A stretch of 64,000 nucleotides of DNA, taken from the NCBI GenBank assembly GCA_030710605.1, contig CP092877.1, forward strand, positions 75,127,571-75,191,570, in the 5' to 3' direction. Below, one piece after another: positions 11,105-60,762 of this stretch (the stretch's first letter is position 1; the number at the start of each line of letters is the position of its first letter). A program made the position numbers and the translations under genes. The notes beneath the pieces are model-generated. The model searched no databases. It saw only the letters and a list, made by a program, of their open reading frames with translations, and was not told the DNA's origin. This DNA is from Cordylochernes scorpioides. Its lineage: Eukaryota > Arthropoda > Arachnida > Pseudoscorpiones > Chernetidae.

Positions 11105-11560
11105 ACACATATAAAGGTATTATAAAAAAGCCATCTCCTTATCGTGCAACTGAAAGTTTCTGATGGCTTGCGCCATCTATCGGAATAAATATCAACTATT
11201 CGCGTTGATTTTTAATTATTCCAGAATTGGCCAAATACCCATTCTTGATTAATCAAGAAAAGCTAACCACGGACACGTTTCGGGCCGTTGGCCCTCATCA
11301 GTGTGGTGCAAGCTCTACCTCAACGACCAAAAAACTGGTCATTCAGGCATCCTGAAAAATCATGAAACGGGCAGTTAAGGCCAGAATTGCGTGAGACATC
11401 TGGACTAATTAAAAATTCAACAAGAATAGTTTATATTTATTCCGATAGATGGCGCAAGCCATCAGAAACTTTCAGTTGCACGATAAGGAGATGCCTTTTT
11501 TATAATTTATGAACTTTATCCCAGTATAATATCAGATTTGTACTATATATTGCACATATA
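11105..11560. repeat. Family A element, palindromic, with hammerhead
   Basis: Outer arms (AAGCCATCTCCTTATCGTGC at the left; inverted at 11455-11505) flank a unique middle carrying a minus-strand hammerhead at 11266-11307. The right end continues with CCAGTATAATATCAGATTTG. Terminal repeats of Penelope elements are known to carry hammerheads; no coding sequence is present here. Confidence 0.75.
11266..11307 (-). ncRNA. Hammerhead ribozyme, type I order, very short stem III
   Basis: Minus strand: CTGATGAG (11301-11294), stem II GGGC/GCCC closed by CAACG, GAAAC (11281-11277), GT, then GTC (11274-11272). Stem I forms between ACCAC upstream and GTGGT downstream of the cleavage triplet, with one mismatch at the base. 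Stem III is two pairs (A-U, C-G) around a 2-nt loop, as in minimal Penelope/retrozyme hammerheads. Confidence 0.75.
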
Positions 11561-11817
11561 AAGGTATGAATAAAACAAAAAAGAATAAATCCATATAGCC
11601 AGAATATCAATCCAAAGTAGAAACGCTATTTTCTTATCTTCCAACAAGAATCCACTCCCAATCCTATCACAAAATGTCAGAATAAACGTGGGTTCTCTAC
11701 GTGTGATAAATTCTACCTTCCATATTTTTTTAACATTTTATCTATTTGAAATATATATTAAGGCAGTTTTTATATCTCTCGTTCCATCATTTCAGAATAA
11801 TTTTATGGATTTCTTTA

Positions 11818-17125: not shown

Positions 17126-17844
17126 CATCATGTCTAATATGATGAACTTGCGCGCCATTAATTTTGATACATCATGTATAATTGAATTTTTATTAAAAAA
17201 ATATCTAAAATTCGTATATACCTTTATTTAAAATATAGACGAATGTATAAAATATTTTAAAGAATATGAAAGAAAGTCGTTACAATGAGATATAAAATTT
17301 TGATATCGTATGCTATTTTAAAACCTTTCTATTTCATATTCAACAAAGAAGTCGTCTGAAAAAAATAAAAAAGTATAAATAAAATACAATGTATTGTGTA
17401 TAGCGAATAATAGCTCTTCGAACACAATACATAACGTATTTATCACGTCAATAAAGAAATGAAAAATGGGAAAGCACGCTGTGAATATGATTTATCATTT
17501 ATACGTTGATGTGAAAATTGGCTAGAAAATTGATACAAAATTCTCCCTATTTGTATTCCAAAGTTTAGACTTTGTAACATTTCTTTTATATATGTAAGGT
17601 TATTGAATATAAATTTACATTTAACTCTTTTTCCTATTTATTTTCTTATACAAGATTTTTTTTTTATAAATAGTTTTGACATTTCGGTAACAGGGTTGTA
17701 ACTATCTTCAGACAAGAGTACAGAATGAGAAATTTTACCACAGTATGTTTTAAATAGTTAATGCTATCAAATGTGTGAACAATTATCTTCTTATCTGCTA
17801 TCTTGTTTACACACTTGACAACAGTAACTATTCAAACATGAAAA
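17126..17844. other. No gene seen
   Basis: AT-rich. A weak Penelope-like string (GTCTGAAGATAGTTACAACC on the minus strand near 17715) lacks a stem II. Confidence 0.35.
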
Positions 17845-18062
17845 AATGGTACAAATGTGATATTGTACTGGGATAAGGTGCATAAATAAAGAAAAAAGCA
17901 TCTCCTTATCGTGCAACTGAAAGTTGCTGATGGCTTGCGCCATCTATCGGAATAAATATCAACTATTCTCGAGTATCAACGAGAATAGTTGATATTTATT
18001 CCGATAGATGGCGAAAGCCATCAGCAACTTTCAGTTGCACGATAAGAAGATGCCTTTTTCTT
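17845..18062. repeat. Family A palindrome
   Basis: Arms 17889-17968 and 17976-18056 are near-perfect inverted copies (CATCTCCTTATCGTGCAACT outward, GAATAGTTGATATTTATTCC inward) with almost no spacer. The ribozyme-bearing middle of other A copies is missing. Confidence 0.85.
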
Positions 18063-18064
18063 AA

Positions 18065-18175
18065 TATTTAAAACATATTTATATAAAAAATAGACACTTC
18101 GGCCAGTTGGAGTTTTTATTTTTATTTTTTCAACGTTTCGACAAAAATCTTTTGTCTTCGTCAGGAGAAGTAAAT
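18065..18175 (-). repeat. Penelope-like element 2 terminal-repeat fragment with hammerhead
   Basis: Same sequence as 12480-12560 (minus): GACACTTCGGCCAGTTGGAG, then the hammerhead (CTGACGA, GACAAAAGATTTTTGTC, GAAAC) at 18126-18170. Confidence 0.65.
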
Positions 18176-24375: not shown

Positions 24376-24471
24376 AACATATATATATTATTATTATTTT
24401 GTTAATTAATTCAAAAATGAATGTCTCTTTGGAACAATAATATCATTTTCCGCAACTATCTTATACATATA

Positions 24472-25868: not shown

Positions 25869-25994
25869 TAATAATATATTATACAAGAATGACATCCACG
25901 GCGCCAATTTATAATTGTAACGAATAGTATTTGAATAAAAGCATTTAATCGGGTAAAACTCGGGCGTTGCCCGGGTCATTCGGCTAGTGTATTA

Positions 25995-26160
25995 TAAAAA
26001 AAAAGGCATCTCCTTATCGTGCAACTGAAAGTTGCTGATGGATTGCGCCATCTATCGGAATAAATATCAACTATTCTCGTTGATTTTTAATTATTCCAGA
26101 ATTGGCCAAATACTTTCAGCAACTTTCAGTTGCACAATAAGGAGATGCCTTTTTAAATAA
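25995..26160. repeat. Family A copy with deletion
   Basis: Left arm GGCATCTCCTTATCGTGCAA to ATTCCAGAATTGGCCAAATA, then directly the inverted right end CAACTTTCAGTTGCAC. The hammerhead region is deleted. Confidence 0.7.
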
Positions 26161-26218
26161 TGTATGCACCTTATTCCAGTACAATATCACATTTCTACTT
26201 TTTTTCACATACAAGTAT

Positions 26219-27237: not shown

Positions 27238-27550
27238 CATTTATATTAAGATGCACTAGCGCGCCATCTGTTATGAAAATTCAAAACTATTATAGACGTG
27301 TAAGATTCTTTTTGAAAATTAAACAATCTCTACTGCTCTTAGTGCAATGGAAAAATTAAAATGGGCGGGCCTGGCTCATCAGTGGTGAACCCTCCCAGCT
27401 TTTTTCAAACTTAAACTGGCGAAACCGCTGGCAGGGTTCACCACTGATGAGCCAGGCCCTCCCATTAATTTTTCCATTGCAGTAAGGGCAGTAGAAATTG
27501 TTTTATTTAAAATATATTCTTACGAGTCTGAATTATTTTCGAACTTATAA
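27238..27550. repeat. Family C palindrome
   Basis: A minus C half (GCGCGCCATCTGTTATG, then GGGCGGGCCTGGCTCATCAG) and a plus C half with AAACTGGCGAAACCGCTGGC and CACTGATGAGCCAGGCCC face each other. Confidence 0.8.
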
Positions 27551-27944
27551 ACATATTAAGGCGTCTGCTAGAGTATACTTATTTGCATATGCATTGAATC
27601 GATTGACATATTTTCCCATTGCTCGCTGTAGTTGATCTAGACAACTGCTCATATTTAAAGCTCTGGTTTATCATTCTGTTTTCACTATTACTGTATGTTG
27701 GGTTGGTTTGTCTGAAGTTTTCCCAACTGCAATTCTTCTAAACATATAGTATAGTAAAAAAATAGTTATAATAATTATGTTCAACAATGTTTTTCTTTTC
27801 CCAAAATTATCAGATATTATTTCTACAGGCCTTTCTTTAGTATACTATATTAATAAATTGAATTTACACAATTGTGTGTGTGTGTGTGACACTTTTTTTA
27901 TACATCTTTAATTATTGGCATTTCCCGACCGCTCACATGAGGAT

Positions 27945-28425
27945 TTTAGAAGACAGAGAGCGCCATCTAGTGGAACAAAAATCAACTAAACATTGATTTA
28001 GCTTGTTCCCTGATATTTGGCCAACCCAATTTCTTAATAAATCAAGAAAGTCAAACCACGCACACGTTTCGGGCTGTTTTCTATTTATTTCTTGATTTTT
28101 AAGATTAAAAGTGTCTTTACGCAAATTTATCCTTAAATACCTATTTCTTGTTATCTCAGGAAGCCTCTAGGACCAAATCTTTGGTCGTAGAGGTACAGTC
28201 TGCACTACGCTGACGAGGGCCAACAGCCCGAAACGCATACGTGGTTGACTTTTCTTGATTTAATCAAGAAATTGGGTTGGCTAAATATCTTTGGAACAAG
28301 CTAAATCAACGTTTAGTTGATTTTTGTTTCACTAGATGGCGCTCTACCATCTAAAATGTTCATGTGAGAGGTCAGTAAAATGCCAATTTTGTTTTTAATA
28401 TCAACACCTGACCTTTTTTCTATTT
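27945..28425. repeat. Family B element with hammerhead
   Basis: Starts GCGCCATCTAGTGGAAC. It contains an incomplete minus hammerhead (28040-28077: GAAAC side only) and a complete plus one (28204-28245), and ends with the inverted arm CACTAGATGGCGCTCTACC and GTCAGTAAAATGCC. Confidence 0.75.
28204..28245 (+). ncRNA. Hammerhead ribozyme, CUGACGA form
   Basis: Stem I ACTACG, CTGACGAG, stem II GGGC/GCCC, GAAAC, then GCATA and CGTGGT. The inner stem III pair is lost (C opposite A), so it may be weakened. Same architecture as 50959-51000. Confidence 0.55.
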
Positions 28426-28639
28426 CTTGATTTTTAACATCTTTAATTATATTAGTTGAAGGAGGTGGTGAGAAACAGAGCTGGAGCGTTTGTGTTGTTC
28501 AAATTTTGGAAGACGGCTGAAGAGAAGGGGAAGCTATACACATAATCTAATTGATGTAAATAATTATATGTAAATAATCTTTGTCGGGATTAGAATGACG
28601 AATCCTGTATGGGACTTTGATTCCAGTAAAAGGCTTGTT

Positions 28640-37065: not shown

Positions 37066-37890
37066 ATCTTTTATAACAAATTCAAAACTAATTTTGACGC
37101 ATATGATTATTTTTTAATAACAATTTTCTATCATGATGCATTAGCACGCCATCTGTTATCAAAATACGAAACTATTATAGACGTGTATGATTCTTTTTAA
37201 AATAAACAATTTCTACTGTCCTTACTGTAATGGGAAAATTAATGGGAAGGCCTGGCTCATCAGTAATGAACCCTCCCAGCGGTTTAGCCAGTTTAATCTA
37301 CCATACCGCTGTTATATTGCATTTTTCGATCTTCCTTTCTTAGTGATACTGATGCTGAACTCTTGGAATGGGTATTTTAGATGAACTATGGAGATAAGCT
37401 TTGAGGACAGTAGAAATACATACAATTATAAATGTATAATATACTGCCCTTATTGCAATGATAAATTAAAGGGAGGGCCTGACTCATCAGTAGTGAACCC
37501 TAAGCGGTTTCGTCAATTTAATCTACCATACCGCTGTTATATTGCATTTTTCGATATTCCTTTTATAATTATACTGATGCTAGACTCACGGAATAGGTAT
37601 TTTAGAAGAACTATGAACACAAGCTTTGAGGACAGTAGAATCACATACAATTATAAATTTATAATATACTGCCCTTATTGCAATGATAAAATTAAAGGGA
37701 GGGCCTGGTTATCAGTAGTGAACACTCCCAGCGGTTTCGTCAGTTTAATCTACCATACCGCTGTTATATTGCATTTTTCGATCTTCCTTTTATAGTGATA
37801 CTGTTGGTAGACTCTTGGAATGGGTATTTTAGAAGAACTATGGACACAAGCTTTGAGGATATCAGAATTACATATAATTATAAATATATG
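37066..37890 (-). repeat. Family C, three tandem units
   Basis: Three direct copies of the C unit (cores near 37255-37300, 37485-37520, 37705-37745), each starting CCTTACTG/CCCTTATTGCAATG and ending with TGAACTATGGAG or equivalent. Cores are variously damaged. Long open frames through them have no known domain. Confidence 0.75.
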
Positions 37891-48974: not shown

Positions 48975-49377
48975 TTTTTTTTTGCTACATGTTTTAATTT
49001 GCATATACCTATTTTACATATCTCAGATTGTATTTAAAAATCGTTAACCATTTCTTCTAACTTTTGGCGTAATGGTGTTTTATTAATTTATCATTTGATA
49101 TTATTAGGGTTCTTTCCTGGTATTCAAAAAGTAAAAATACGTGTCGTTCAGTTATATTTTTCAATTTATCAAACAATTTGGCCGCTGAATCGCTGATTCT
49201 GGTAGGGCGCCATCTAGCGAATAAAGTTGTAACTAAAATCAATTTATAATTTTTCATTATTTGCCATAAAAAATCCCATTGCATCCTGAACACAATGGTG
49301 TTTACCGCATTGCTCTAGCGCAAATATTCGCGGAGTTATTAATTTTTAAAGTTGTGCGGGACTTTTGGATCACCCTG
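48975..49377 (-). repeat. Right terminal inverted repeat (~403 bp)
   Basis: Reverse complement of 39996-40399. The promoter-side leader of the transposase lies between 48813 and 48974. Confidence 0.9.
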
Positions 49378-49915
49378 TACATGCTAAAAGGTACAACTTC
49401 CTTAAGTTTTGTCCATGAGTATATACACACTTGGTTATCTCGTGTGTCTTCAATAAAGGTCACTGTAATATCTTTCAGAGTTATTGTCTGAATCCCGATA
49501 TACATGCTAAGAGGCACAACTTCCTTAAGTTTTGTCCATGAGTGTATATACACTTGGTTATCTCGTGTGTCTTCAATAAAGGTCACTGTAATATCTTTCA
49601 GAATTATAATCTGAATCTCGATAAAAATGCTAAAAGGCACAACTTCCTTAAGTTTTGTTCATGAGTATATACACACTTGGTTATCTCGTGTCTTCAATAA
49701 AGGTCACTGTAATATCTTTCAGAGTTATTGTCTGAATCCCGATATACATGCTAAGAGGCACAACTTCCTTAAGTTTTGTCCATGAGTGTATATACACTTG
49801 GTTATCTCGTGTGTCTTCAATAAAGGTCACTGTAATATCTTTCAGATTTATTTGTCTCAATCCCGATATACATGCTAAAAGGTACAACTTCCTTAAGTTT
49901 TGTCTATGAATGTAT
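49378..49915 (-). repeat. 123-bp tandem array, right side
   Basis: About four units on the minus strand, spaced ~123 bp. The first is the continuation of the unit broken at 39995. One frame again stays open across units (41-residue repeats, for example DITVTFIEDTRDNQVYIHSW). Confidence 0.88.
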
Positions 49916-50214
49916 ATCTATTTACTTCGTACATCACGAATAATAAAAATTGTGAAATATTTTAAGTAAAATTTCGACGTAAAACTTATAAATAAAATTA
50001 AATTTACTAGAGAGTTGGAATAAAAAAAGTGCTTCTACATTAAATATAATTATATAAAAAGGGTGTTCATGGATCTGTGAAAAGAAAATTGAGTTTTCTT
50101 CCAATAATCTAGCTACACCCTTTTTACCTAATCTAATTAACTATGCAAAGAGAGAGAAGAAATACAGTAAATGGATTTTATCTCCGATATGTTAAATATC
50201 CTTACCTATTTCTG
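49916..50214. other. No gene; short inverted ends only
   Basis: AAAAAGGGTGTTCATGGATC and TAGCTACACCCTTTTT (50058-50125) are short inverted ends around ~50 bp. Otherwise unremarkable. Confidence 0.3.
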
Positions 50215-50715
50215 TGTTGAAAAAATAGTACAAATGTGATATTGTACTGGGATAAGGTGCATAATTATGAAAAAAGGGCATCTCCTTATCGTGCAACTGA
50301 AAGTTGCTGATGGCTTTCGCCATCTATCGGAATAAATATCAACTATTCTCGTTGATTTTTAATTATTCCAGAATTGGCCAAATACCCATTCTTGATTAAA
50401 CAAGAAAATCTAATCACGGACGCGTTTCGGGCTGTTGGCCCTCATCAGCGTGGTGCAAGCTGTACCTCAACGACCAAAAAATTGTTCATTCAGGCATCCT
50501 GAAAAATCATGAAACAGGTAGTTAAGGCCAGAATTGTGTGAGATCGCGACACAATGTGAAAAAATAGTACAAATGTGATATTGTGGTTAGCTTTTCTTGA
50601 TTAATCAAGAATGGATATTCGGCCAATTCTGGAATAATTAAAAATCAACGAGAATAGTTGATATTTATTCCGATAGATGGCGCAAGCCATCAGCAACTTT
50701 CAGTTGCACGATATT
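50215..50715. repeat. Family A element with hammerhead
   Basis: Left end AGTACAAATGTGATATTGTA and GGGCATCTCCTTATCGTGC; inverted right end GATAGATGGCGCAAGCCATC and AACTTTCAGTTGCACGATA. The middle carries the hammerhead at 50413-50454 plus a second, partial left-end copy (50550-50580), so the element looks rearranged or dimeric. Confidence 0.8.
50413..50454 (-). ncRNA. Hammerhead ribozyme, type I, GUC cleavage triplet
   Basis: Minus strand: stem I ACCACG, CTGATGAG (50448-50441), stem II GGGC/GCCC with CAACA loop, GAAAC, GC, GTC, then CGTGAT. Stem I pairs CGTG with CACG plus the outer pair. All canonical core bases are present. Confidence 0.82.
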
Positions 50716-50817
50716 TCTGTGTTATTTATTTATTAAGTAATGCTAAAAGAAAGAGTTAATATGATTATCATGAATTTCAAGCTAATAAAAATACATATAA
50801 TATTATCAAAAACAAAA

Positions 50818-51065
50818 AAGGCATATCCTGACCAGGCTCACATGAGATTTTCTAGATGGCAGAGCGCCATCTAGTGGAACAAAAATAAACTAAACGTTTA
50901 TTTAACTTGTTCCGTGATATTTGGCCAACCCAATTTATTGATATATCAAGGAATGCCAACCACGTACGCGTTTCGGGCTGTTGGCCCTCATCAGCGTGGT
51001 GTATCCTCATGTGAGCGGTCAGAAAATGCCATTTTTGGTTTTAATATCAACACCTGATCACATTT
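50818..51065. repeat. Family B element with hammerhead
   Basis: GGCATATCCTGACCAGGCTC, GCGCCATCTAGTGGAAC and TTAACTTGTTCCGTGATA lead into the hammerhead. The right end, GAGCGGTCAGAAAATGCC, is inverted. Confidence 0.75.
50959..51000 (-). ncRNA. Hammerhead ribozyme, type I, best-paired copy
   Basis: Minus strand: ACCACG, CTGATGAG (50994-50987), stem II GGGC/GCCC closed by CAACA, GAAAC (50974-50970), GC, GTA, then CGTGGT. Stem I is six perfect pairs, stem II four and stem III two (A-U, C-G). The cleavage triplet is GUA. Short stem III suggests activity would be best in dimers, as known for minimal hammerheads of this type. Confidence 0.85.
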
Positions 51066-51107
51066 TAAAATTCTTTTCTTATTTTTTTCACATTTTTTTT
51101 TTTTTTT

Positions 51108-51378
51108 TTGCTTATCCCTAGTACACGTGGTACAGGCCATGATAATCATGGTGGGTAGTTAGCGACTGCTTTTTACTGTAAGCGCACCACATGTCTACAC
51201 ATGTGAAAGCAGTTCGACTTTGTACTTACAAATGTGCCAGAGCCCCGTTTGGTTACTTGCACTCGGTGGTGGGGTTGGACTTTTGCAAGAATCGGGGGGC
51301 CATTGGAGCATTTTTTTTTTAAACAGAAAAAAGTGTCCAATGCGGGGATCGAACCCGGGTCGTAGTGGTCGTAAACCA
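51108..51378 (-). mobile_element. SINE-A copy, head 5' truncated
   Basis: The minus strand begins within the head at TTTACGACCACTACGACCC, has B box GGTTCGATCCC, and ends CTAGGGATAAGC followed by a long A run. Confidence 0.88.
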
Positions 51379-51589
51379 ATTTTTCACATAAAATTATTGA
51401 ATATTGTATCAAATCATATATAATTCTAACATATCAAATTTTGTGTCATTGAATATCTTTCTTTACATTTCAGGAACGTATTTATTTATAATTATTTATA
51501 TATATATATATATTGCGTATGATTTTTGTCCGATTCATTAGTGCTGTAAAGACCAGGATATCCTAAAGGATATTTGGTGATCAGTTGGT

Positions 51590-51990
51590 GATATCTGTCG
51601 ATCAAAAGATCTAGCCCGAGGGCGCATGCCGGCCATCACCTTCCTCGGAAGAAGCCGCTCCTAACATGGGGGACAGACGCTTCAGCAGCCGTTCCTAACA
51701 TGGATGCAGGCGCTGGAGTAGTTGTTGTTGGCTACAGCCTTTGGTTGATTACATGGCGGGCTGGACTCGCCATTTGACTCAGTGTCGTCATTGGGCTTTT
51801 GTGGCTTTTTGTAGAGGTACCAGTGCCACCTGATACCCCACCACGCCCTGGTAACACTGACGCTGCTTGTTCGCGACTGCTTATTTGACCAGTTGTCTGA
51901 TCTTATTCGCAGCTAACCATCATATCTGATGGCCGTTCCCCTATCCACAGCCCGGGGACGCGCCTGGCAGCAAATTATTTATATAAATTC
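51590..51990 (+). repeat. GC-rich repeat-like segment, probably a LINE 3' region
   Basis: Composition shifts sharply. It contains two near-copies of CGTTCCTAACATGGATGCAG/CGCTCCTAACATGGGGGACA and ends with CATATCTGATGGCCGTTCCC, CAGCCCGGGGACGCGCCTGG before AT-rich sequence. No ORF is intact. It reads like a retrotransposon 3' end, but I cannot name it. Confidence 0.35.
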
Positions 51991-52379
51991 TTATTATGAT
52001 TATTTTATTTATTACCAGTTGCGACACGCTATATCCGATCTGGATAATTGCACGTGAAACTATTTACAATAATTGTAGTAGAGTAGGTAACAGAATTATC
52101 AAAAAGAAAACAAACAATTAAGAAAAAGAGCATTGAATAAACATATACATTAAACAAATAAGCATACAACATAAGCAGATAGAAGAAACCGCAAGGTAGT
52201 TATTTACAATATGTTAAGCAATGATGGAAGTTGATGAAGTTATCTGTAATAATTAGTATCGTGGAGAGAGAAAGTTGCTGATAAAGTTGATTCTCTCTTT
52301 ATCTTAAAATATATTTTATATAAGAAAAAGATACTATAAGCTATATATTTCTACACTTCCCAAATCTATCATTTATATA

Positions 52380-52683
52380 TATGTCATAATATTATCCTTC
52401 CAGGAATAATAAAGTAAATCTACAGTCGACCAGAGAGAGACGTAGAGAGGAGGATGTAAAGGCCGGTCACTTGATATATCAGTCACATTCCAAGGGGCCC
52501 ATATTCGTAGAACCTCGGGACTATTTTTGGACAGTTGGGGGGTGGTGTGCGACACGAACGGTCGTTCAGCGGTGACATCCCCTCGCGCTCCCTCTCTCTC
52601 GCTGGTTGCCTGGAATTTCTCTTCCAAACTTGTGGTTTCCTTATTTCTCTCTCCCCACATTATTATCATCTTGCCACATTGAA
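52380..52683 (-). repeat. Repeat family R copy
   Basis: Inverse of 15627-15925: CATAATATTATCCTTCCAGG to CCCACATTATTATCATCTTG, with TGTGCGACACGAACGGTCG in the core. Confidence 0.7.
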
Positions 52684-52755
52684 AGTCGACAGGATCATAT
52701 CACAGAAGAGTCGGCAGGATCCACAGAAGAGTCGGCAGGATCATATCACATATAT
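52684..52755 (+). repeat. Short tandem repeat, 19-bp unit
   Basis: AGTCGACAGGATC, then two CAGAAGAGTCGGCAGGATC units. A related AGTCGACAGGACC string ends the LTR at 54317. Confidence 0.6.
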
Positions 52756-53155
52756 ATATTTTATTATTTTTATTTCAAATTAAAGCGCTATGTCCCCCTA
52801 GGTACACTTGCGCTGTCATACATTTATGTCTTTACATTTTTAAACATATATATACAATAATTTTAGGCCGTGAATAGAATAGTCATATGATGTTAACAAT
52901 GAGAAAGAGAGAAAAAAACGAGAAAAAAGAACTGTGTTCAAAAGAAAGAAGTGTCTGGCAATATGTACAATCAACATAATATAAATTATTTGTAAAATAT
53001 ATTTGTTGCTATATAATTTAAAATATATTTACAAAAGGTATTGAATTTAATATACATTTCTTACTATATATATATATATGTTATATAAAAATATTATTTT
53101 ATTTAAAGTTATATATAATCAAACAAAATAAACGCGACAGAAGAGGAGTTTCTTA
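52756..53155. other. No feature seen
   Basis: AT-rich sequence including (TA)n stretches. Confidence 0.35.
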
Positions 53156-53437
53156 AATTTAATACTCGCGAGCTTTCGGACCGTGACGTCCTTCAACTGG
53201 CTATAGAATGAAAGTGTAAACGACTATATATAGAGCTAAGAAATACTAATTTACATAATGGAAATTAAAAGTATACATTTAAATTAACATACTGCAGAGA
53301 TCAACCAAGATTACATATTTACATGTGAATTAAAATACAACGGCGTAAACTATTGTGATTGCGAGGGATAAGAAAGAAAGATAGTAAGTATGTATTTGAT
53401 ATTGAAGGCATGATGACGGGTGGATTTGGATAAGGTA

Positions 53438-53614
53438 CTATTTCAACAGAATATGGTATGAGTCAGGTATATCGATATGTCTGTTGATACTATTGCATTG
53501 TAATGATATCATGGCCTCCAGGATCAATCTTTGATATTTGCTATTGATGTTCTTATAATGGATGGTTGGATTGGATAAATCAAACGAGTGACCTGTATTT
53601 GAGATATGGGTATA
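53438..53614 (-). pseudogene. Penelope-like GIY-YIG C-terminal segment beyond the LTR
   Basis: Reads HISNTGHSFDLSNPTIHYKN and YQRLILEAMISLQCNSINRH to a TAG stop. It has the His/Asn and Glu positions expected in the second half of the GIY-YIG fold and is uninterrupted. Confidence 0.8.
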
Positions 53615-54377
53615 TGATAATTTAAACCAATAACCCTATATTATGTAATTTATAACAAGATTGTCATGTTGTATATAGAACTAATTATAAACTATAACTA
53701 ATTATATGCATAATTGACGTGTGTCCTTGTATCCCCATATGTAATGTACTGAGGATGAATAAATAAAAATATATAATAGATTAAAAGCTGAGTTAAGAGC
53801 CAGAGGGAGAATCACAAGTAACTTCTAAAGATAGATTGGAAGCGACAGACTGTCGCCAGTGTCCGGTGTCCCTCGACACGTGCATGACCCAATTCTCGTA
53901 GTATAAATAAGACCGGCCTTAGCAACAGAGTTAGTTCAGTTCCCCATCAGCGCGTGGCCGGCTGTCTCCAAGTTCCACCTCATTTCACCATGTAGTCAGT
54001 AAGAAACGCTACTCCTATCTCCATCTTTGCTTTTGGCTCGACTTTTTATCTATTCAAAGAACTTTCTTTCAACTGTGTCGCTTCGTTTTGTGTGTGTGGA
54101 CATTCCCCAGTTTTCCACTCTGCCTCGACCACGACTGCCTGTACCCTGTGAGAACTGTTAAAGATCCTACAAGGTGCAGAGAGGTACGGGAAAACTCTCC
54201 ACCCCTGACTGTCCCTCGCGGTTACTACAGGTTTGACCCTCGGTTGCCACAACTTATAGCGAGAGTCGACGAGGTTCTACAACAGGCTTACCAAACCCCA
54301 ACGCATTATTACAGCTAGTCGACAGGACCACAACACAATATTACAGATAGTCGTCAGGATCTCAACATATTATTACA
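53615..54377 (+). mobile_element. Solo LTR inserted in the Penelope ORF
   Basis: TGATAATTTAAACC ... TATTATTACA, flanked by GGTATA at 53609-53614 and 54378-54383. Homologous to 21710-22429. A ~40-bp internal segment near the 3' end (CACAACACAATATTACAG.TAGTCG) is duplicated here. TATAAATA is at 53902-53909. Confidence 0.88.
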
Positions 54378-55394
54378 GGTATATATTTGGGATGTTATGG
54401 TCTTATTGGTTATGTTCCTGCTGTGTTCATTCATTCTGATGGCCGCAGATCTACCCGTTTCCCCCACGTAAATGGCGGAGCATTGACGACATGGGACGGC
54501 ATAGACCGCGCCTTCAGAATTACAATTGTTGGTGGGTTTGTTAGATCGGGTTATAGGGTTTCTGGTTATGGATGCGATGTTAGGGTTATTGTAGTAGAAT
54601 GTGTTGATGCCGTATGGTTTCAGTAGTGAAGCTATGGCAACTGACTGTGGACTGTAGGGGAGAGTGCAGTGACTTTTGTTTGTTTGTGCCGGTTTTGTAT
54701 AATTTGGGTTGTAAAAGTGTCTGTTGATGAATGAGATTGGGTAATTGGCATTTGTCAAATGGGCTATTATCTTTGGTTTCTCTATGTTTTGGAATATGTT
54801 AAGTGAACAATGTGTGAAGATCCGCTTGGTAAGGGTCTTCACTAAGCTTATTTTATGGGTAAAAGGGCAGTGGGAGCTATAATGTGTGTAGTGTGGGGGT
54901 GAGTTGTTCTTATAGTAAACGGTAGTGTGAAAGAAATTATTGGTACGGATTATTAAGATATCAAGGAAGGGAAGGACAAAAGAGGTTTCAGTTTCGTATG
55001 TGAAAGAGATATCGGGATGAAATGAATTTAGGTCATTAAGTATATGGCTAACCGAGTCTATTTTTGTGATGCAGAATATATCATCTATGTAACGTTTCCA
55101 GAAGTATATGCTAGAGGATTGCTGTTGATTGATCCTTTCATCCAATGACACCATTACAATTTCTGCAACGATGGATGATAGTGGGCTGCCCATAGGGGAG
55201 CCCCTAATTTGTTTGTAATATTGTTGATTAAATGTAAAGATGTTCATATCCAAGCAAAGGGAGGTTAAATTAATAATATAATCGGCTGTGTGGGTGTCAA
55301 TTGGTGTGTTATATAAAAGTTTTCCGAGCTCACTTATAATGAGTGGGTGGGGAAGGGATAAATAGAGGGATTTCACATCAATCAGGGTTTAAAT
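54378..55394 (-). pseudogene. Penelope-like RT (palm part) and GIY-YIG endonuclease, interrupted
   Basis: The frame opens at DVKSLYLSLPHPLI (RT motif A region), then YYKQIRGSPMGSPLSSIV (motif B) and FWKRYIDDIFCI (motif C). An extended thumb follows, then the endonuclease GAVYAVPCRQCSAIYVGETG with RSAAIRMNEHSRN. This is the RT-GIY-YIG order of Penelope elements with canonical motifs intact; finger motifs are missing through 5' truncation. The remaining endonuclease tail lies beyond the LTR in the same reading phase once the LTR and one 6-bp duplication are discounted. Confidence 0.88.
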
Positions 55395-55725
55395 ATTCTG
55401 TTGAATCGACCGCCAGAGGTCACGCTTTGCATATAAAACTCGTTGTTGTTATATCCCAATGGCCGGCTCAACCCTTTTGTACATTTTGTAAATAACTTTT
55501 TCATTTTTTTCTTACGCATTAAGCCAGGCATTCATTTTATCAAATTATGTTTTCTATATTCCAAAAGCTCAATTAAAGCCATTTCTAATCTTTACTATTT
55601 TTATTATATTTTCAAGATTATTATTTCAACCACGACTGCATTACATTACCATAATCCTCAACATGATCAAGAATACAACAGAAAATCTCATTCATATTTG
55701 TATTTATAACATATATAAACTATAC
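55385..55725 (-). repeat. Repeat family U copy
   Basis: Inverse of 23985-24375 (CGACCGCCAGAGGTCACGC; ATGGCCGGCTCAACCC; ACAACAGAAAATCTC). The Penelope element is inserted at its CAGAATATTTA end. Confidence 0.65.
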
Positions 55726-55980
55726 TTTCTATACAAATCTATTATTTGCTAAGTTACATCGCTATAAAAGTAGTCTACAAAATGGGATAAAGACACAGAC
55801 ACAACTATTTCACCAAACTATGAGTCCAATATTTTGCTGTGAAACACAGTAAACCAATAGAAAAAAAAAGGAAAACAATTAACTCGAGTTATTTCCCCAA
55901 TCCTCTTACATAGAAACGCTTCCCTCAATCCGATTTTGTTCTTTTTATCACTTCACCAATATAATCAACTTTTTGAAAAA
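55726..55980. other. No feature seen
   Basis: AT-rich; no repeat recognised. Confidence 0.35.
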
Positions 55981-56425
55981 AATAGTACAAATGTGATATT
56001 GTACTGGGATAAGGTGCATAAATTAAGAAAAAGGCATCTCCTTATCATGCAACTGAAGATGTCTTTTTCATAATTTATGAACCTTTATCTCAGTATAATA
56101 TCACATTTGTACTATTTTTTCACATTGTGTTGCGGTCTCACGCAATTCTGGCCTTAACTACCTGTTTTATGATTTTTCAGGATGCCTGAAGTACCAATTT
56201 TTTGGTCGTTGGTCGTTGAGGTACAGCTTGCACCACGCTGATGAGGGCCAACAGCCCGAAACGTGTACGCGGTTAGCTTTTCTTGATTAATCAAGAATGG
56301 GTATTTGGCCAATTCTGGAATAATTAGAAATCAACGCGAATAGTGAATATTTATTCCGATAGATGGCGCAAGCCATCAGTAACTTTCAGTTGCGCGATAA
56401 GGAGATGCCTTTTTCATAATAATCA
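55981..56425. repeat. Family A element with hammerhead
   Basis: AGTACAAATGTGATATTGTA, AAGGCATCTCCTTATCATGC and, after a shortened left part, GTTGCGGTCTCACGCAATTC lead to the plus-strand hammerhead. The right arm is GATAGATGGCGCAAGCCATC to GATAAGGAGATGCC. Confidence 0.78.
56232..56273 (+). ncRNA. Hammerhead ribozyme, type I, GUA triplet
   Basis: ACCACG, CTGATGAG (56238-56245), GGGC/GCCC stem II, GAAAC (56258-56262), GT, GTA, CGCGGT. Stem I has one A-C mismatch; all core residues are canonical. Confidence 0.8.
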
Positions 56426-56985
56426 ACTTTGTAAAACTTTTCAATTTTATGAACTTTCTCACTTAACAACTTTGTATTCTCTATATCTAGATATAAATCT
56501 CTTTTATGTGTCTTTAATATTGGTGGTGGTGCTTATCTCCATGGTTAAACCAATTCCTGAAGTCCTCTCCAATTTTGCCATGGTAGTTATAGGCCTGGAA
56601 AATAGGTCCTCTATTATCAATTCTGAGCATGATATGTTCCGGAGAAGCTTCCGTACTATTGTATTTCAAGCAGTTATTGAAGATTTTTTGTCCATTTTAA
56701 AATTTTAAGGTTTTTATATCGCCACTTCTTTGTCTTGCTAAAGCTGTTTATTGATTTCTATTGAGTTTTTGAAGTTCTTCTAATTGTTTCAATGTACCAG
56801 TGATGATTTGGAGATGCTGTCAGTTTTGATTTATATATTTTTTATTGGTTCTTGTTTGTTTAGGTAAATAGCTATGGTTATCTTTGCATGACTAGTGTAT
56901 TAATTATATAGTAGGTTTAATGATTGATCATATTTTTACTATCTTTACAGAGTAATTAATTTTGTTGTATATAATAATATATACA
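56426..56985. other. No convincing gene
   Basis: A plus frame to 56708 (hydrophobic start, LILVVVLISMVKPIPEVLSN) overlaps the family A arm upstream, has no recognised domain and is probably chance. Confidence 0.3.
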
Positions 56986-56989
56986 GTTA

Positions 56990-57300
56990 TCAGCGTCATG
57001 CACAATTCTTTCTTAATTCTGTCACCGTTTGTTTTTGGTTCAGTGGTAGAATGCTCGCCTGCAATGTGGGCGCCCCGGATTCGATTCCCGGCCGATGCAT
57101 TTTTTTTTACAATTTTTAAAACTCATTTATATTATTAAAATATATGTGCTTTTCCTGTCTATGTACACAAGTATACAAGTATGTATACAACTTATTTGCA
57201 AATTGCGTGGCAAATTTGCCCTTTCGCTCGCAAGCAGCGCCTCTAGCGGTGAAGATGGGAGGTAATATCAGCTGACCTAATGGACATGTAAAACGTGTTT
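56990..57300 (+). mobile_element. tRNA-Gly cassette with Helitron interior sequence
   Basis: ACAGTTATCAGCGTCATGC, the tRNA-like region, ACAATTTTTAAAACTCATTT, then Helitron-type CCCTTTCGCTCGCAAGC and GCGCCTCTAGCGGTGAAGAT as in 13740-13800. No 3' CTAG terminus is found before the sequence changes. Confidence 0.5.
57031..57099 (+). pseudogene. tRNA-Gly-like pseudogene, 5' acceptor deleted, anticodon GCA
   Basis: GGTTCAGTGGTAGAATGCTC is intact, the anticodon loop is CTGCAAT (GCA), and the T arm has GATTCGATTCC. The 5' acceptor strand is replaced by TTTGTTTTT, the same deletion as at 57531. T8 follows. Confidence 0.7.
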
Positions 57301-57436
57301 TAACAGGACATAGAGAAAAATCTAAAAAATATATTTTTCGGATTTTTAGTCAAGAAAAATAAATTGACAGGTTCTGGGAAAAAAGTAGTTGTTTTTTATT
57401 CAGAAAATGATGATGACAATATTGCTGTATCATTAA

Positions 57437-58002
57437 TATATATAGTCACGACCGTCTGTCGTGGCCTCTGTCACGGATAAAATACAGTTATCATCGTCAT
57501 GCGTTCTTAATTCTGTCACCGTTTGCTTTTGGTTCAGTGGTAGAATGCTCGCCTGCCACGCGGGCGCCCCGGGTTCGATTCCCGGCCGATGCATTTTTTT
57601 TATTTTTTACAATTTTTAAAACTCATTTATATTATTATCCCTATTTATATAAAAGTCAGCGTATGAATGTATGTTTGTCACCTATACACGTCCACAATAC
57701 GTAACTAATCTGACTGATATTTTAACAGTATATAAAGTAGAATCTGGAAAAACTCTTAGTGAAAATTTCAGGTCTCTATCCCGAATATTCGTCGTGTTAT
57801 TTGCAAATTTGCTCTTTCGCTTGCGCCTCTAGTGGTGAAAATGGGGGGTAATACCAGCTGACCTAATGTACATGTAAATTTTGGAGCGGGACGTTTCACA
57901 AGAGTGACATCCACGGCTCCAATTTATAATTGTAACTAATAGTATTTGAATAAAAACATTTAATCGGGTAAAACCCGGGCGTTGCCCGGGTCATTCGGCT
58001 AG
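57437..58002 (+). mobile_element. Helitron with tRNA-Gly cassette, inner complete Helitron at 57648-58002
   Basis: Outer start TATATAGTCACGACCGTC, then CTGTCACGGATAAAATACAG directly into the tRNA cassette. A second start TCCCTATTTATATAAAAGTC follows at 57648 after A. The shared 3' end is CTAG 57999-58002 (ACCCGGGCGTTGCCCGGGTC hairpin) before T. Confidence 0.75.
57531..57593 (+). pseudogene. tRNA-Gly (GCC)-like pseudogene, 5' acceptor deleted
   Basis: D arm, anticodon loop CTGCCAC (GCC), GGTTCGATTCC and 3' acceptor CCGATGCA are intact. The 5' acceptor is missing (TTTGCTTTTGGTTCAG). Both pol III boxes remain. Confidence 0.75.
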
Positions 58003-58009
58003 TAATCTA

Positions 58010-58215
58010 TAAGAGATAAAGGTCGCCTCTCCCGTCAAAATAGACGTCAAAACTAGACGCCATCTATTGACCGTCACCGCAAACTAGCGGTCTCGGGTCG
58101 GTGACAAAGCCACAACACCAGCTTTGGCAAACTGAAAAGCGTCCACCTAGAGACCATGGAAGGGAGAGGCGACCTTTGTCTCTTCAGATCAATATCCTCC
58201 CGGCAAAATTTCCTT
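58010..58215. repeat. Family E copy, one arm rearranged
   Basis: GTCGCCTCTCCCGTCAAAAT, GACGCCATCTATTGACCGTC and GGTCTCGGGTCGGTGACAAA match 26219-26420. The right arm retains GGGAGAGGCGACCTTTGTC. Confidence 0.65.
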
Positions 58216-58235
58216 CTATAATAATCTATATAAAC

Positions 58236-58298
58236 TTCTATTTCTACCCACCCTGATTATCATGGCTTGTACCACGTGTACTAGGGATAAGCAAAAAC
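58236..58298 (+). mobile_element. SINE-A 3' tail only
   Basis: TGATTATCATGGCTTGTACC, ACGTGTACTAGGGATAAGC and a short A run. Confidence 0.75.
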
Positions 58299-58319
58299 AA
58301 TCTATATAAAAAAGCATAA

Positions 58320-58560
58320 ACTCTTTTTTACTAGCCGTTTCATGATTTTTCAGGATACCTGAATGACCTTTTTTTTTGGTCGTTGAGGTACATCTCACGC
58401 TTACGAGGGCCAACAGCCCGAAATGCGTATGTAGTTAGATTTTCTTGATTAATCAAGAATAGGTATTTGGCTAATTCTCTGTAATAATTAAAAATCAACA
58501 AATAGTTGATATTTATTTTGATAGATGGCGCAAGCCATCAGAAACTGTATATTTGTATAT
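58320..58560. repeat. Family A copy, degenerate hammerhead
   Basis: GCCGTTTCATGATTTTTCAG and TTTGGTCGTTGAGGTACATC lead to CTTACGAGGGCCAACAGCCC, GAAATGCG (58400-58425). The core is mutated at two or more positions. The right arm has GATAGATGGCGCAAGCCATC. Confidence 0.65.
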
Positions 58561-58670
58561 CTCTAATTATTAATTAGAACGAGGCATTATGTTCATTACT
58601 CTAGTAAAAAAAAACCTTACCTAGTGATGATCAAGAAAGAGTGACAAAGCCAGTTTTGGTAAACTGGTAT

Positions 58671-58980
58671 ACACACATACAGCTTTATTAAAGCCATCGG
58701 TCTTATACAGATTCACCACAGGAAGGAAGCATAGATAGAGCTCTTATACTCCAGGCAGCACAGAACACAACAACAGCCTCCAGGTCCGACGTATGTTCAG
58801 TGGCCATAGATTCCAGCATATTATTTTACACACATACAACTTTATTAAGACCACAGGGCTTATACAGATTCACCACAGGAAGAAAAGAAGCATAAATAGA
58901 ACTCCTCTACTCCAGTTAACACAGAACCCAACAACAGCCTTCATGTCCGACGCATTTCCAGTGGAAATACGTTCCTTCGT
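58671..58980 (+). repeat. Tandem duplication, ~157-bp unit, two copies
   Basis: ACACACATACAGCTTTATTA at 58671 and ACACACATACAACTTTATTA at 58828. Both continue with TTATACAGATTCACCACAGG and CAACAACAGCCT. Family unknown. Confidence 0.75.
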
Positions 58981-59204
58981 GTGCATACGTCAAGATAAAC
59001 ATATCTCTGAAAAGGCGAGTGTGGAATCAACTAGTATATAAATATATATATTATATAAAAATGAAAGAAATTTCTGTTGATTATGAGATTAATTGCTTGT
59101 AAAGGAATTATTGGTCATTTTCTTGATTTTGGTTATCTTGAGGATTAAGCTCTGGTGATGCGCAGTCGTGGTTAATAATTTTGAAATAATAATAATATTG
59201 AATA

Positions 59205-60501
59205 CAGAGGGTGTTTCCTTTCAAATGAAACGATTTCAAACGTCCGTTAGAACTTTATTTTTCGAACGTGAATTTTTTTCATGTGTTCTATGTGCTTCCC
59301 CGTCTTCTTGGCTATCTCCCTGCATCGGACTTTCCAAGCTGCGAACACTTCCTTGACTTTGGAGAGCGAAACATTCGACCACTCCTCTTGTGCGGCTTTC
59401 CAAAGTCCGGCCTCAGTTTTGGGACGTCGGTTGAAGAGCCGTTGTTTCAACATACCGAACCCGTAAAAATCCAGTGGGCTGGCGTCGGGAGACTTCACTG
59501 GAATGTCCGAGTTCCTGATAAAATTTAAGCCTAGGGTGTCCTTCATTTCTTGTAGGAACTGTTGGGTTTTGTTGGAGGTATGGGAAGAGGCTTTGTCGTG
59601 ATGAAGGAACACTTTGTCCATTTCCCCTGGGTAAAGGTCCTTCAGTTGTTCGATGACAGGTTTCAGAACGCATTCTATATAGAATTCTGAGTTCACCTTC
59701 ACCTTCGATGGAACCTTTATGAGCGGAAGGACTCCACGGCCAGTCATTACCCCGACAACCATGAAACCTTTAGGGAAAGTTTCGGAGCATTGGTGAACCC
59801 AATTATCCGGGACCTGATTGCCTCTTTTGATGTAGCAGATCTTCCGGATTCCATTGCAATACGTCACATACATCCATGCTTCGTCCAATGTTGCAGTATA
59901 TTCCGATCTGGAACCGGCCAGGTGTTCCTCGTAGAGCTTCCGGGCATTCGTTGCACGGTTTTTCATGTGGAAAGGGGTGAGCTTGTGAACCTTGCCTTTT
60001 CGTCGGGTATCCAGTTCCAAATCTTTGTGAATGATGTTATTTATCGTTTTTAGCGATGTTCCACACATTCTGGAAAGTTGGCGCTGAGATGGTGGATTTT
60101 CAGTAGTTGCTAGCCGCTTTACCTTGGAAACCGTGGCGGGGGTCCGCACCGGACGTGGTCGATCGACTTGAAATTTTTGCCCATTGGATTCAGCTTCCCT
60201 TTTCTTTCCGATGCCATTTACTACCCTACATATTGTAGCTTTGCCAACATCTAGTCCTTCTGCTTTTAGCTTTTTCACTATGACGCTATAACTGTTTCCT
60301 TCTTTGGAAAGGGTCCGAATTGTTTGTTCGACTTGGAGCGTTAGTCTCTCTCCCCCCATGTTGCAAAAATCATGATACCTGATGAAAATGAATTCTCCAG
60401 AAGATTCTAGATCTATTGGAACCAGTGTCGTGTGCAGCATGCCTGCACGTGCAAAACGCGAGCGCTCGAAAATCGTTTCATTTGAAAGGAAACACCCTCC
60501 G
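59205..60501 (-). mobile_element. Complete mariner-like transposon (1297 bp)
   Basis: Inverted ends CAGAGGGTGTTTCCTTTCAA (left) and CGGAGGGTGTTTCCTTTCAA (right, read inward) extend about 30 bp to ATGAAACGATTT. TA duplicates lie at 59203-59204 and 60502-60503. One long uninterrupted ORF fills the interior on the minus strand. Confidence 0.93.
59247..60440 (-). CDS. Mariner-family transposase, DD41D (rosa-like), intact
   Basis: 397 codons without interruption; a more typical start is Met28 (MGGERLTLQ, at 60359). The N-terminal paired HTH region spans about residues 30-130 (ICRVVNG; SQRQLSRMCGTSLKTINNII). The catalytic triad is D186 (TLDEAWMYV), D282 (VFLHHDKASSH) and D324 (SPDASPLDFYGFGMLKQRL), with 41 residues between the last two by my count. 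That is the DD41D spacing of the rosa group rather than DD34D mariner. It would cut and paste at TA. With matched inverted repeats this copy could be recent and autonomous. Confidence 0.9.
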   Translation of the reverse strand: MLHTTLVPIDLESSGEFIFIRYHDFCNMGGERLTLQVEQTIRTLSKEGNSYSVIVKKLKAEGLDVGKATICRVVNGIGKKREAESNGQKFQVDRPRPVRTPATVSKVKRLATTENPPSQRQLSRMCGTSLKTINNIIHKDLELDTRRKGKVHKLTPFHMKNRATNARKLYEEHLAGSRSEYTATLDEAWMYVTYCNGIRKICYIKRGNQVPDNWVHQCSETFPKGFMVVGVMTGRGVLPLIKVPSKVKVNSEFYIECVLKPVIEQLKDLYPGEMDKVFLHHDKASSHTSNKTQQFLQEMKDTLGLNFIRNSDIPVKSPDASPLDFYGFGMLKQRLFNRRPKTEAGLWKAAQEEWSNVSLSKVKEVFAAWKVRCREIAKKTGKHIEHMKKIHVRKIKF

Positions 60502-60762
60502 TATTAGATATTTATTTATTTGAGCTAAGGAATATACATAAAAAAGATAATTTGGTAAAAGAACTCCCTTACTTAAGGCGAGTAGAATAAGGAAAACAAA
60601 AGAATTTTTACATAATGTACAAAAATTTAAGCCGGCCAACGGGGAACAACAACAATGAGTTTTTATAGGGGAAGCGTGACCTCTGGCGGTCGAGTTAACA
60701 GAGTATTTGTATCTATGAAATATAATTTTAAATAGAATAATATTTTTATATAATATATATGT

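What the first reader, a model, noticed from the sequence alone, without database searches (positions are those of the whole stretch)
50959..51000. Family of hammerhead ribozymes in Penelope-linked palindromic repeats
Six copies (11266, 28204, 50413, 50959, 56232, 58394) share CTGATGAG (or CTGACGAG), a GGGC/GCCC stem II, GAAAC, a 2-nt loop and a GUC or GUA triplet, with stem I formed by flanking ACCACG/CGTGGT. The 50959 copy pairs perfectly. Two repeat families (A and B) with unrelated arms share this cassette. Hammerheads in Penelope terminal repeats are known. Here they sit in short palindromic elements without coding sequence, which could be non-autonomous, retrozyme-like parasites of a Penelope element.
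Basis: partly seen in the sequence, partly recalled or inferred. Interest (0 to 1): 0.75.

Follow-up and report, generated by a model that had tools for sequence, protein, structure and literature searches.

The report
Ribozyme repeats inserted Penelope-style
This animal genome carries thousands of short non-coding repeats with a hammerhead-type self-cutting RNA motif, and the way their ends are built suggests that they are copied into new places by the machinery of Penelope-type jumping genes, a helper that had been proposed for such animal elements.

Summary
The six hammerhead-like copies are real, with corrections: 58394 has a broken core, and the A and B arms are homologous, not unrelated. 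The family has 9,590 exact 35-nt ribozyme matches in the 2.62-Gb genome (reversed control 0). The unit is about 338 nt and strongly self-paired; its ribozyme is the minimal type I form known from Penelope-like elements (PLEs). Copies occur as 338-350-bp tandems and as head-to-head palindromes, often with duplications of 10 bp or more.

Main result: element 3' ends fall in two classes about 46 nt apart. In 18 of 19 classifiable palindromes one end is short and the other long. One PLE family of the same genome shows the same anatomy (about 33 nt apart). This is the PLE "tail" signature: two internal start sites for reverse transcription. The two arms share private variants far above chance, so in young elements both strands were probably copied from one template.

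Best reading: retrozyme-type elements inserted by PLE machinery, each cut target strand priming its own cDNA at a different start site, perhaps on a small RNA circle. No PLE with the unit's sequence was found. Cleavage and circles are untested, and Rfam's curated score is not reached.

The parts
50959..51000 (-). Hammerhead motif, focal copy (B50): stem I ACCACG/CGUGGU, CUGAUGA core, stem II GGGC/GCCC, GAAA, palindromic ACGCGU stem III, GUA triplet
   Evidence: 36 nt identical to the A-family ribozyme
50804..51086 (-). B-type element around the focal ribozyme: arm 50804-50964 (-), inverted tail piece 51007-51086 (+); no clear target duplication
50413..50454 (-). Hammerhead motif of element A50 (GUC triplet, one stem I mismatch)
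50219..50711 (-). Element A50, head-to-head palindrome: full unit with long (tailed) end plus an inverted arm starting at unit position 2 and ending at 132 (neither class)
50207..50218 (.). Target duplication of A50, left copy (TATTTCTGTGTT)
50712..50723 (.). Target duplication of A50, right copy
56232..56273 (+). Hammerhead motif of element A56 (GUA triplet, one stem I mismatch)
55973..56418 (+). Element A56, head-to-head: long (tailed) end on the left, short end on the right
55961..55972 (.). Target duplication of A56, left copy (ATAATCAACTTT)
56419..56430 (.). Target duplication of A56, right copy
11266..11307 (-). Hammerhead motif of element A11 (GUC triplet, mismatch next to the core)
11121..11552 (-). 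Element A11, head-to-head, one short and one long end; target duplication CACATATAAAGGTAT at 11106-11120 and 11553-11567
28204..28245 (+). Hammerhead motif of element B28 (CUGACGA core, GUA triplet)
27916..28436 (+). Element B28, head-to-head; the inverted arm runs across the cleavage site to stem II; target duplication ACATCTTTAATTAT at 27902-27915 and 28437-28450
   Evidence: (read by eye)
58394..58435 (+). Decayed hammerhead of element A58 (CTTACGAG core, predicted inactive)
58327..58546 (+). Element A58, decayed, one direction only
17839..18065 (.). A-type head-to-head palindrome without ribozyme, one long and one short end; no duplication of 10 bp
25994..26210 (.). A-type head-to-head palindrome without ribozyme, one short and one long end; no duplication of 10 bp
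54354..55388 (-). Penelope-like element of family 1: RT domain (Pfam RVT_1) followed by a GIY-YIG-like motif read by eye (no Pfam hit); a further C-terminal piece at 53441-53614. Copies with 798-aa open frames elsewhere in the genome. The family shares insertion anatomy with the repeats, but not their sequence

Best explanation
The repeats are non-autonomous, non-coding retroelements of the animal retrozyme kind that are integrated by Penelope-like machinery. Proposed cycle: (1) genomic units are transcribed (inferred). (2) The hammerhead, whose stem III is a self-complementary ACGCGU with only a 2-nt loop in the monomer, cleaves as a dimer in multi-unit RNA and yields monomers of about 338 nt that may be ligated into small, highly paired circles (inferred; pairing and ribozyme conservation are shown). 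(3) A PLE protein with its GIY-YIG nuclease makes staggered cuts in AT-rich DNA (duplications shown; enzyme inferred). (4) Each cut strand primes its own cDNA inside the RNA, one at the short site (unit ~149-157, in the loop of a conserved hairpin) and the other at the long site (~186-209, mostly 198-204) (two sites and one-of-each rule shown; priming inferred). (5) In young elements both reverse transcriptases copy the same kind of template, sometimes for more than one lap (shared private variants and blocks up to 1,893 nt shown; a single circular molecule inferred). (6) The two cDNA ends are joined at variable points, leaving a head-to-head palindrome; when one strand fails, a single-direction or tandem copy remains.
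For: 9,590 exact ribozyme matches, control 0. Of the first 100 listed places, neighbours under 1.5 kb: 12 tandem (338-350 bp), 8 head-to-head, 1 tail-to-tail. Two end classes; 18 of 19 classifiable palindromes short/long, reached by 16 of 100,000 permutations. PLE family 1 of the same genome has end classes 268-289 and 311-317; clear short/long palindromes L042+L045, L046, L062, L070. PLE hits are also head-to-head: 16, against 3 tandem and 0 tail-to-tail neighbours within 6 kb, among 117. Duplications of 10 bp or more in 22 of 56 chains (fragments and duplicated loci included) against 2.5% of mispaired flanks. Arms share 75 of 216 minority states counted over fragment pairs (35%) against 3.5% expected, maximum 9% of 500; 15% against at most 8.7% without L078, L079, L034 and L076. 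In L078 six segments on both strands carry the same variants. L040 holds five near-identical 338-nt monomers. Ribozyme pairs hold in 92.4% of cells, 12 double-change cells against 4.2 shuffled. Start-site hairpin: 13 double-change cells against 6.3. Unit folds at -118.9 against -76.6 kcal/mol, z -7.9. Ribozyme block more conserved between one A and one B unit than the rest, 41/47 against 174/280, p 0.0007. Literature: two adjacent internal start sites define the PLE tail and both target strands are cut and extended (PMC11167929); the tail lies on one of the inverted pLTRs and inserts are mostly head-to-head with TSDs (PMC3846280).
Against: No PLE carrying the unit was found. Of 30 family-1 loci (L041-L070) three match: L041 through A56 itself, L049 with a 59-nt tail fragment, L056 with a 33-nt ribozyme-core match; unit against one locus each of families 1 and 2 gives at best 16 nt, E 6e-4. 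Tail lengths differ (about 46 against 33 nt). In the lizard PLE studied in vitro, ribozyme mutants did not affect insertion, unprocessed RNA was the dominant substrate, no reads ended at the cleavage site, and start-site choice did not differ between strands (PMC11167929): this speaks against a need for cleavage or circles and gives no strand rule. Rfam gathering scores are not reached. RNAalifold predicts no structure on the start-site alignment. The numbers of pairs with double changes are not above shuffles (66 of 500 reach it; 170 of 500; 191 of 500). Five isolated ribozymes fold no better than shuffles. cDNA ends do not clearly cluster at the cleavage site: 4 of 58 by script, p 0.02, but L040 really ends near 322 and L085 is ambiguous, leaving two. 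In several palindromes the arms share little or nothing (L024 1 of 10, L029 1 of 18, L030 1 of 24; A50, A56, 17.8 kb and 26.0 kb none). One palindrome (L024) and one PLE (L066) have two short ends. Tandem units could also come from tandem genomic templates or unequal exchange; gene conversion could make arms alike.
Confidence: 0.65

Rival explanations
1. Solo pseudo-LTRs or deletion derivatives of an unidentified autonomous PLE family: the unit is that PLE's own pLTR with its hammerhead, and the palindromes are degraded PLE inserts rather than an independent retrozyme.
For: Minimal hammerheads are known from PLE pLTRs (PMC7761336 passages); PLE inserts have inverted pLTRs with a tail; PLEs are very abundant here (49,865 and 62,219 first-look candidates, mostly unscored).
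Against: 338-bp tandems of the non-coding unit; unit-length and multi-unit inserts with their own duplications; no PLE coding sequence within 1.5-2 kb at 39 of 40 ribozyme loci L001-L040 (tblastn with families 1 and 2; remote families could be missed). The exception, L003, has a family-3 PLE with its own ribozyme-like motif; in the window A56 lies beside a PLE but has its own duplication. PLE families 1-3 carry different ribozyme-like motifs.
Confidence: 0.2
2. Self-priming (fold-back) by a PLE reverse transcriptase, as proposed for rotifer PLEs (PMC3846280): one strand folds back and is copied, giving the palindrome.
For: Head-to-head palindromes with alike arms are expected (passages).
Against: A folded-back copy should have the same outer end on both arms; here 18 of 19 differ by the tail.
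Confidence: 0.07
3. Palindromic DNA transposons (MITE-like fold-back elements) that happen to carry a hammerhead.
For: Palindromic, non-coding, flanked by duplications, thousands of copies.
Against: Duplication lengths vary (8 to 15 bp, 19 in one AT repeat); junctions are internal and variable; 338-bp tandems; asymmetric ends; conserved RNA pairing.
Confidence: 0.03
4. Retrozymes moved by a LINE with twin priming.
For: Inverted segments and duplications also arise in LINE twin priming (recalled).
Against: In twin priming the inverted piece starts at a variable internal place (recalled); here both outer ends lie at fixed sites and the same two-site anatomy is seen in a PLE family of this genome. 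LINE copies of this genome were not examined.
Confidence: 0.05

Closest known systems
Metazoan non-LTR retrozymes (Cervera and de la Pena 2020, PMC7229834; review PMC7761336)
   Same: Non-coding units of about 170-400 bp with a type I hammerhead, tandem copies, strongly self-paired RNA, PLEs in the same genome.
   Different: Those described are tandem repeats, and most invertebrate ones have a stable helix III (amphibian ones a weak one). Here the ribozyme is the minimal PLE-type variant and palindromic inserts are common. The review says that the repeats show no conserved motif that would reveal the helper; here the insertion ends point to one. The review also notes that most minimal type I motifs are dispersed in non-coding DNA, which elements like these may explain.
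Penelope-like elements (Arkhipova 2013, PMC3846280; Frangieh 2024, PMC11167929)
   Same: Head-to-head inverted inserts, TSDs, AT-rich targets, optional tail on one of two inverted ends, minimal hammerhead.
   Different: The repeats encode no protein and share no more than scraps of sequence with the PLE loci examined.
Minimal hammerheads of PLEs that cleave as dimers (Lunse 2017; paper not held, title seen in the reference list)
   Same: By the title and the review: small type I variants without a proper helix III, associated with PLEs.
   Different: Here in non-coding units; cleavage not tested.
Plant LTR retrozymes (PMC4918200; search listing only, and as described in PMC7229834)
   Same: Non-autonomous elements with hammerheads and circular RNA.
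   Different: Type III ribozymes, LTRs and 4-bp TSDs there; none of these here.

Membership tests
Hammerhead ribozyme, minimal type I | CUGANGA, stem II, GAAA, UH triplet, stem I | tested here: met
   5 of 6 window copies; 58394 fails. Pairs hold in 92.4% of cells, with double changes.
Hammerhead ribozyme, minimal type I | Rfam covariance model above gathering score | tested here: not met
   Best 26.5 bits against 52 for HH9; the model has a longer stem III.
Hammerhead ribozyme, minimal type I | Self-cleavage | not testable with these tools
   Needs RNA.
Metazoan retrozyme | Non-coding unit of about 170-400 bp with one type I hammerhead, found in tandem | tested here: met
   Units 338-350 bp; 12 tandem neighbour pairs among 100 listed places; L040; no frame of 130 aa or more overlaps the window elements.
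Metazoan retrozyme | Stable helix III, as in most invertebrate retrozymes described (not universal) | tested here: not met
   Stem III is ACGCGU with a 2-nt loop. Loop-loop contacts were not tested.
Metazoan retrozyme | Circular RNA | not testable with these tools
   Only indirect: multi-unit blocks and alike templates.
Inserted by PLE machinery | Two adjacent 3' end sites (tail) | tested here: met
   ~149-157 and ~186-209; PLE family 1: 268-289 and 311-317.
Inserted by PLE machinery | Head-to-head inverted inserts with TSDs | tested here: met
   not every element has a recognisable duplication
Inserted by PLE machinery | Copied by a PLE protein | not testable with these tools
   Needs a biochemical or cell assay.
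Penelope-like element (autonomous) | ORF with RT and GIY-YIG | tested here: not met
   Unit too short and without such a frame; no PLE frame within 1.5-2 kb at 39 of 40 ribozyme loci.
Penelope-like element (autonomous) | pLTR shared with a coding PLE | tested here: inconclusive
   Not found in family 1 or 2 loci or at L003; other families were not examined.

The most novel reading that the evidence does not exclude
Penelope-type integration copies a small ribozyme circle from both cut target strands at once: the two subunits of a PLE dimer use two start sites about 46 nt apart on the same RNA circle, one per target strand, and run around it in parallel for up to several laps. This would explain the strict short/long pairing, the shared private variants of the two arms and the multi-unit arms. 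Self-priming would not be needed, and the old observation that only one inverted pLTR of a PLE has a tail would follow.
Probability: 0.35. Interest if true: 0.8.

Novelty: new variant of a known kind. Interest (0 to 1): 0.62.

Why it matters
Which enzyme moves animal retrozymes is open in the papers seen: PLEs are called a strong candidate (PMC7229834), but the repeats are said to show no conserved motif that would reveal the helper (PMC7761336). The end anatomy reported here is such a mark and can be checked in any genome with retrozymes. The short/long rule also separates two models of PLE integration: self-priming (PMC3846280) against two independent starts, one per target strand. More than nine thousand ribozyme copies in one genome make a large natural data set for this.

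Tried and rejected
Unrelated arms: rejected, A and B are homologous. Cleavage site as preferred cDNA end, suggested by A50 (position 2): not clearly supported. The window's PLE as source of the unit: rejected. Chance descriptor scan with shuffles: timed out, not repeated; a pattern scan with shuffles and a reversed-pattern control were used instead. Viral contigs: pattern found 0 times. Rfam on the 225-bp repeat at 37.2 kb: one chance-level match. RNAalifold on the start-site hairpin: nothing. The second ribozyme family seen in L056 could not be counted. The species was not identified.

Rows dropped: L035 (inverted duplicate of the L034 locus) from the pair rule; L022 and L023 (duplicates of L021), L035 and L038 from the variant test; fragments with fewer than 56 unit positions from the variant test; chains under 150 unit positions and L022, L023, L035 from the end positions. 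L038 was split by hand into two elements, and only its first half counted as head-to-head. Two palindromes with an unclassifiable end (L025, A50) were left out of the 19. Loci: 34 of the 79 clusters among the first 100 listed places (all on contig C1) were fetched: the first 20, eight consecutive single copies, and six chosen because the list showed head-to-head pairs, so those six are not a blind sample (without them, 12 of 13 palindromes are short/long). L001-L020, the best matches to the focal ribozyme, were not in the pair rule; B-type ends were not classified. PLE head-to-head neighbours were counted for only, not.

Full report
WHAT WAS CHECKED. The focal copy (50959-51000, minus) has an unbroken 6-bp stem I, a 4-bp stem II, GAAA, the palindrome ACGCGU in place of stem III, and GUA. 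CTGAYGAG occurs 18 times in the window against 1.8 expected; only five of these are the ribozymes. Rfam at gathering scores gives no hammerhead. At the permissive threshold, run on 49000-59500, HH9 gives 18.7 bits at 50390-50467 and 56222-56287, and on L040 26.5 bits, E 0.0047, at each of five tandem copies. The gathering score is 52, so the curated test fails.

THE UNIT. Self-comparison shows that A and B are one family: about 72-77% over alignments of 153-237 nt. Counted from the cleavage site the unit is 339 nt (A50) or 335 nt (B28), and a natural monomer in L040 is 338 nt. Between one A and one B unit the ribozyme block is 41/47 identical, the rest 174/280 (p 0.0007). On 25 ribozymes (23 distinct) 92.4% of pair cells hold and 12 cells change on both sides (shuffled mean 4.2; 0 of 500 reach it); the number of pairs with such changes, 4, is reached by 66 of 500 shuffles. 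The outer part of stem I, stem I itself and stem II each have double changes. The monomer folds at -118.9 kcal/mol against -76.6 for shuffles, z -7.9, 0 of 100. Over 15 units 85.2% of the cells of the predicted circle structure pair, 46 with double changes against 26.3 shuffled, but the number of pairs with such changes (16 against 14.7) and of further pair types (54 against 59.6) is not above shuffles. Five isolated ribozymes do not fold better than shuffles.

NUMBERS IN THE GENOME. The window is part of a 2.62-Gb genome in 24 contigs. The A-type 35-nt pattern (one free base) has 4,858 + 4,732 exact matches, reversed control 0; a B-like pattern with CTGACGAG has 332 + 350, control 0. The output lists only the first 100 places of the A-type pattern, all on contig C1: 79 clusters, 67 of them single; neighbours closer than 1.5 kb are 12 tandem (338-350 bp), 8 head-to-head (153-386 and 1,252 bp) and 1 tail-to-tail.

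INSERTION ANATOMY. In 34 fetched clusters plus the window, A-type 3' ends fall into two classes, by script limits 144-160 and 183-212; in the palindromes they lie at 149-157 and 186-209. Among 21 head-to-head elements (one duplicated locus dropped) 19 have two classifiable ends: 18 short/long, 1 short/short, 0 long/long; 16 of 100,000 permutations reach 18. Leaving out the six clusters picked for being head-to-head, it is 12 of 13. Single-direction fragments end short 20, long 6 and elsewhere 11 times (duplicates included). Exact duplications of 10 bp or more flank 22 of 56 chains, fragments and duplicated loci included, against 2.5% of 2,000 mispaired flanks. The duplications of A50 (12 bp), A56 (12 bp), A11 (15 bp) and, read by eye, B28 (14 bp) are in the parts list; the palindromes at 17.8 and 26.0 kb have none of 10 bp. 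Many duplications are AT-rich, so some matches are weak one by one.

COMPARISON WITH PLEs OF THE SAME GENOME. The window holds a PLE (RT domain E 8e-8; a GIY-YIG-like motif was read by eye from motifs recalled, no Pfam hit; a C-terminal piece lies at 53441-53614). Its protein finds 117 scored hits of 49,865 candidates, several with open frames of about 800 aa. Neighbours within 6 kb are 16 head-to-head, 3 tandem and 0 tail-to-tail. In family 1 the insert ends lie mostly at reference positions 268-289 or 311-317. Palindromic inserts with both ends visible: clear short/long in L042+L045 (one insert), L046, L062 and L070; probable in L049 (short end a 53-nt fragment) and L053 (long end placed at 338); short/short in L066; L050 undetermined. 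Families 1, 2 and 3 have ribozyme-like motifs of their own, different from this one. Matches of the unit in PLE loci are A56 itself beside the window's PLE, a 59-nt tail fragment in L049, a 33-nt ribozyme-core match in L056 and a 38-nt B-arm piece in L072; family 3 was seen only in part, in L003.

ONE TEMPLATE FOR BOTH ARMS. In 19 palindromes 75 of 216 minority states, counted over pairs of fragments, are shared by the two arms (35%), against 3.5% with arms of different elements (maximum 9% of 500). Without L078 it is 23%, without L078 and L079 19%, without these and L034 and L076 15%; null maxima 8.7-9.6% of 300. In L078 all six segments, about two laps on each strand, carry the same variants against the L040 monomer and differ only in A- and T-run lengths. 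Against this, L024 (1 of 10), L029 (1 of 18), L030 (1 of 24) and four window elements (none shared) show no sharing; in old copies mutations after insertion would hide it, but L030 has one arm about 10% more diverged than the other. Gene conversion between arms could also produce sharing; it would not produce the short/long rule.

START SITE. The short end lies in the loop of a hairpin closed by GATAAGG/CCTTATC in A and GGTCAGG/CCTGACC or close variants in B: 89.3% of cells pair, 13 with double changes (0 of 500 shuffles), but the number of such pairs, 3, is reached by 170 of 500, and the changes are mostly the A/B split, thus few events. RNAalifold predicts nothing on the same alignment. In the lizard PLE studied in vitro, reverse transcription starts inside the RNA in a stem-loop, at two adjacent sites that define the genomic tail, and both target strands are cut and extended; the start site does not differ between strands, and ribozyme mutants do not affect insertion (PMC11167929).

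HOW IT MOST LIKELY WORKS. Transcripts with several units fold; the ribozyme, whose own stem III would need a 2-nt loop, acts as a dimer; monomers are released and perhaps ligated. A PLE protein cuts both strands of an AT-rich target and each 3' end primes a cDNA on the RNA, one at each of the two sites. Blocks longer than one unit in one direction (22 block sums of 350-1,893 nt, one of which joins two elements and two belong to the duplicated locus L035) need a circular or a tandem template. The ends of the two cDNAs are then joined at variable positions. Shown here: units, tandems, palindromes, duplications, two ends, the one-of-each rule, shared variants, conserved pairs. Inferred: transcription, cleavage, circles, the PLE as the enzyme, priming and joining. 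The in vitro work on the lizard PLE suggests that cleavage may not be needed for insertion as such.

LITERATURE. PMC7229834 was read in parts 1-4 of 6, PMC11167929 in parts 1-2 of 4 and as passages, PMC7761336 and PMC3846280 as passages. Retrozymes and PLE ribozymes are known; PLEs as helpers are a stated hypothesis; the tail on one inverted pLTR is described for PLEs; dispersed minimal hammerheads in non-coding DNA are noted. The parts seen do not describe palindromic retrozymes or the short/long pairing as a rule. Of paper searches no listed title or abstract start mentions these; most listed papers were not opened, and the library holds open papers only.

Noticed in passing
L056:3926 (+): A different hammerhead with ACCATGGU stem III and GUC (CTGACGAGGGCCATTACCCCGAAACCATGGTC), so the genome probably holds further ribozyme families; counting it failed because the machine was busy.
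   Followed up: partly
window 12553 (-), 12857 (+), 18164 (-): Hammerhead-like motif CTGACGA...TTTGTCGAAACGTTGA; the first two flank a PLE relic at 12565-12819, so they are probably decayed PLE ends whose stem III would be the palindrome ACGU.
   Followed up: partly
window 27316-27508 and 37214-37889: A palindromic element and a 225-bp tandem repeat that share CTGATGAG-containing sequence but did not match the ribozyme pattern; no meaningful Rfam match on the second.
   Followed up: partly
window 50864-50877, 27960-27973 and other B arms: B arms contain CCACTAGATGGCGC (minus strand), which fits the CTCF consensus as I recall it; thousands of copies could spread CTCF-like sites. Not tested.
   Followed up: no
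window 59247-60503 (-): Open frame of 418 aa resembling a Tc1/mariner-type transposase (DDE_3 E 0.005, below the curated cut-off).
   Followed up: no
window 24468-25034, 31685-32295, 49378-49917: Three arrays of what looks like one 123-bp tandem repeat in one window.
   Followed up: no
window 53615-54377: The window's PLE is interrupted between the RT part and its last 58 aa by a segment that begins with a 32-bp minisatellite.
   Followed up: no
L034 and L035: What looks like the same palindromic insertion lies twice on contig C1, 29 kb apart and in opposite orientation with a shared B fragment beside it, pointing to an inverted segmental duplication.
   Followed up: no
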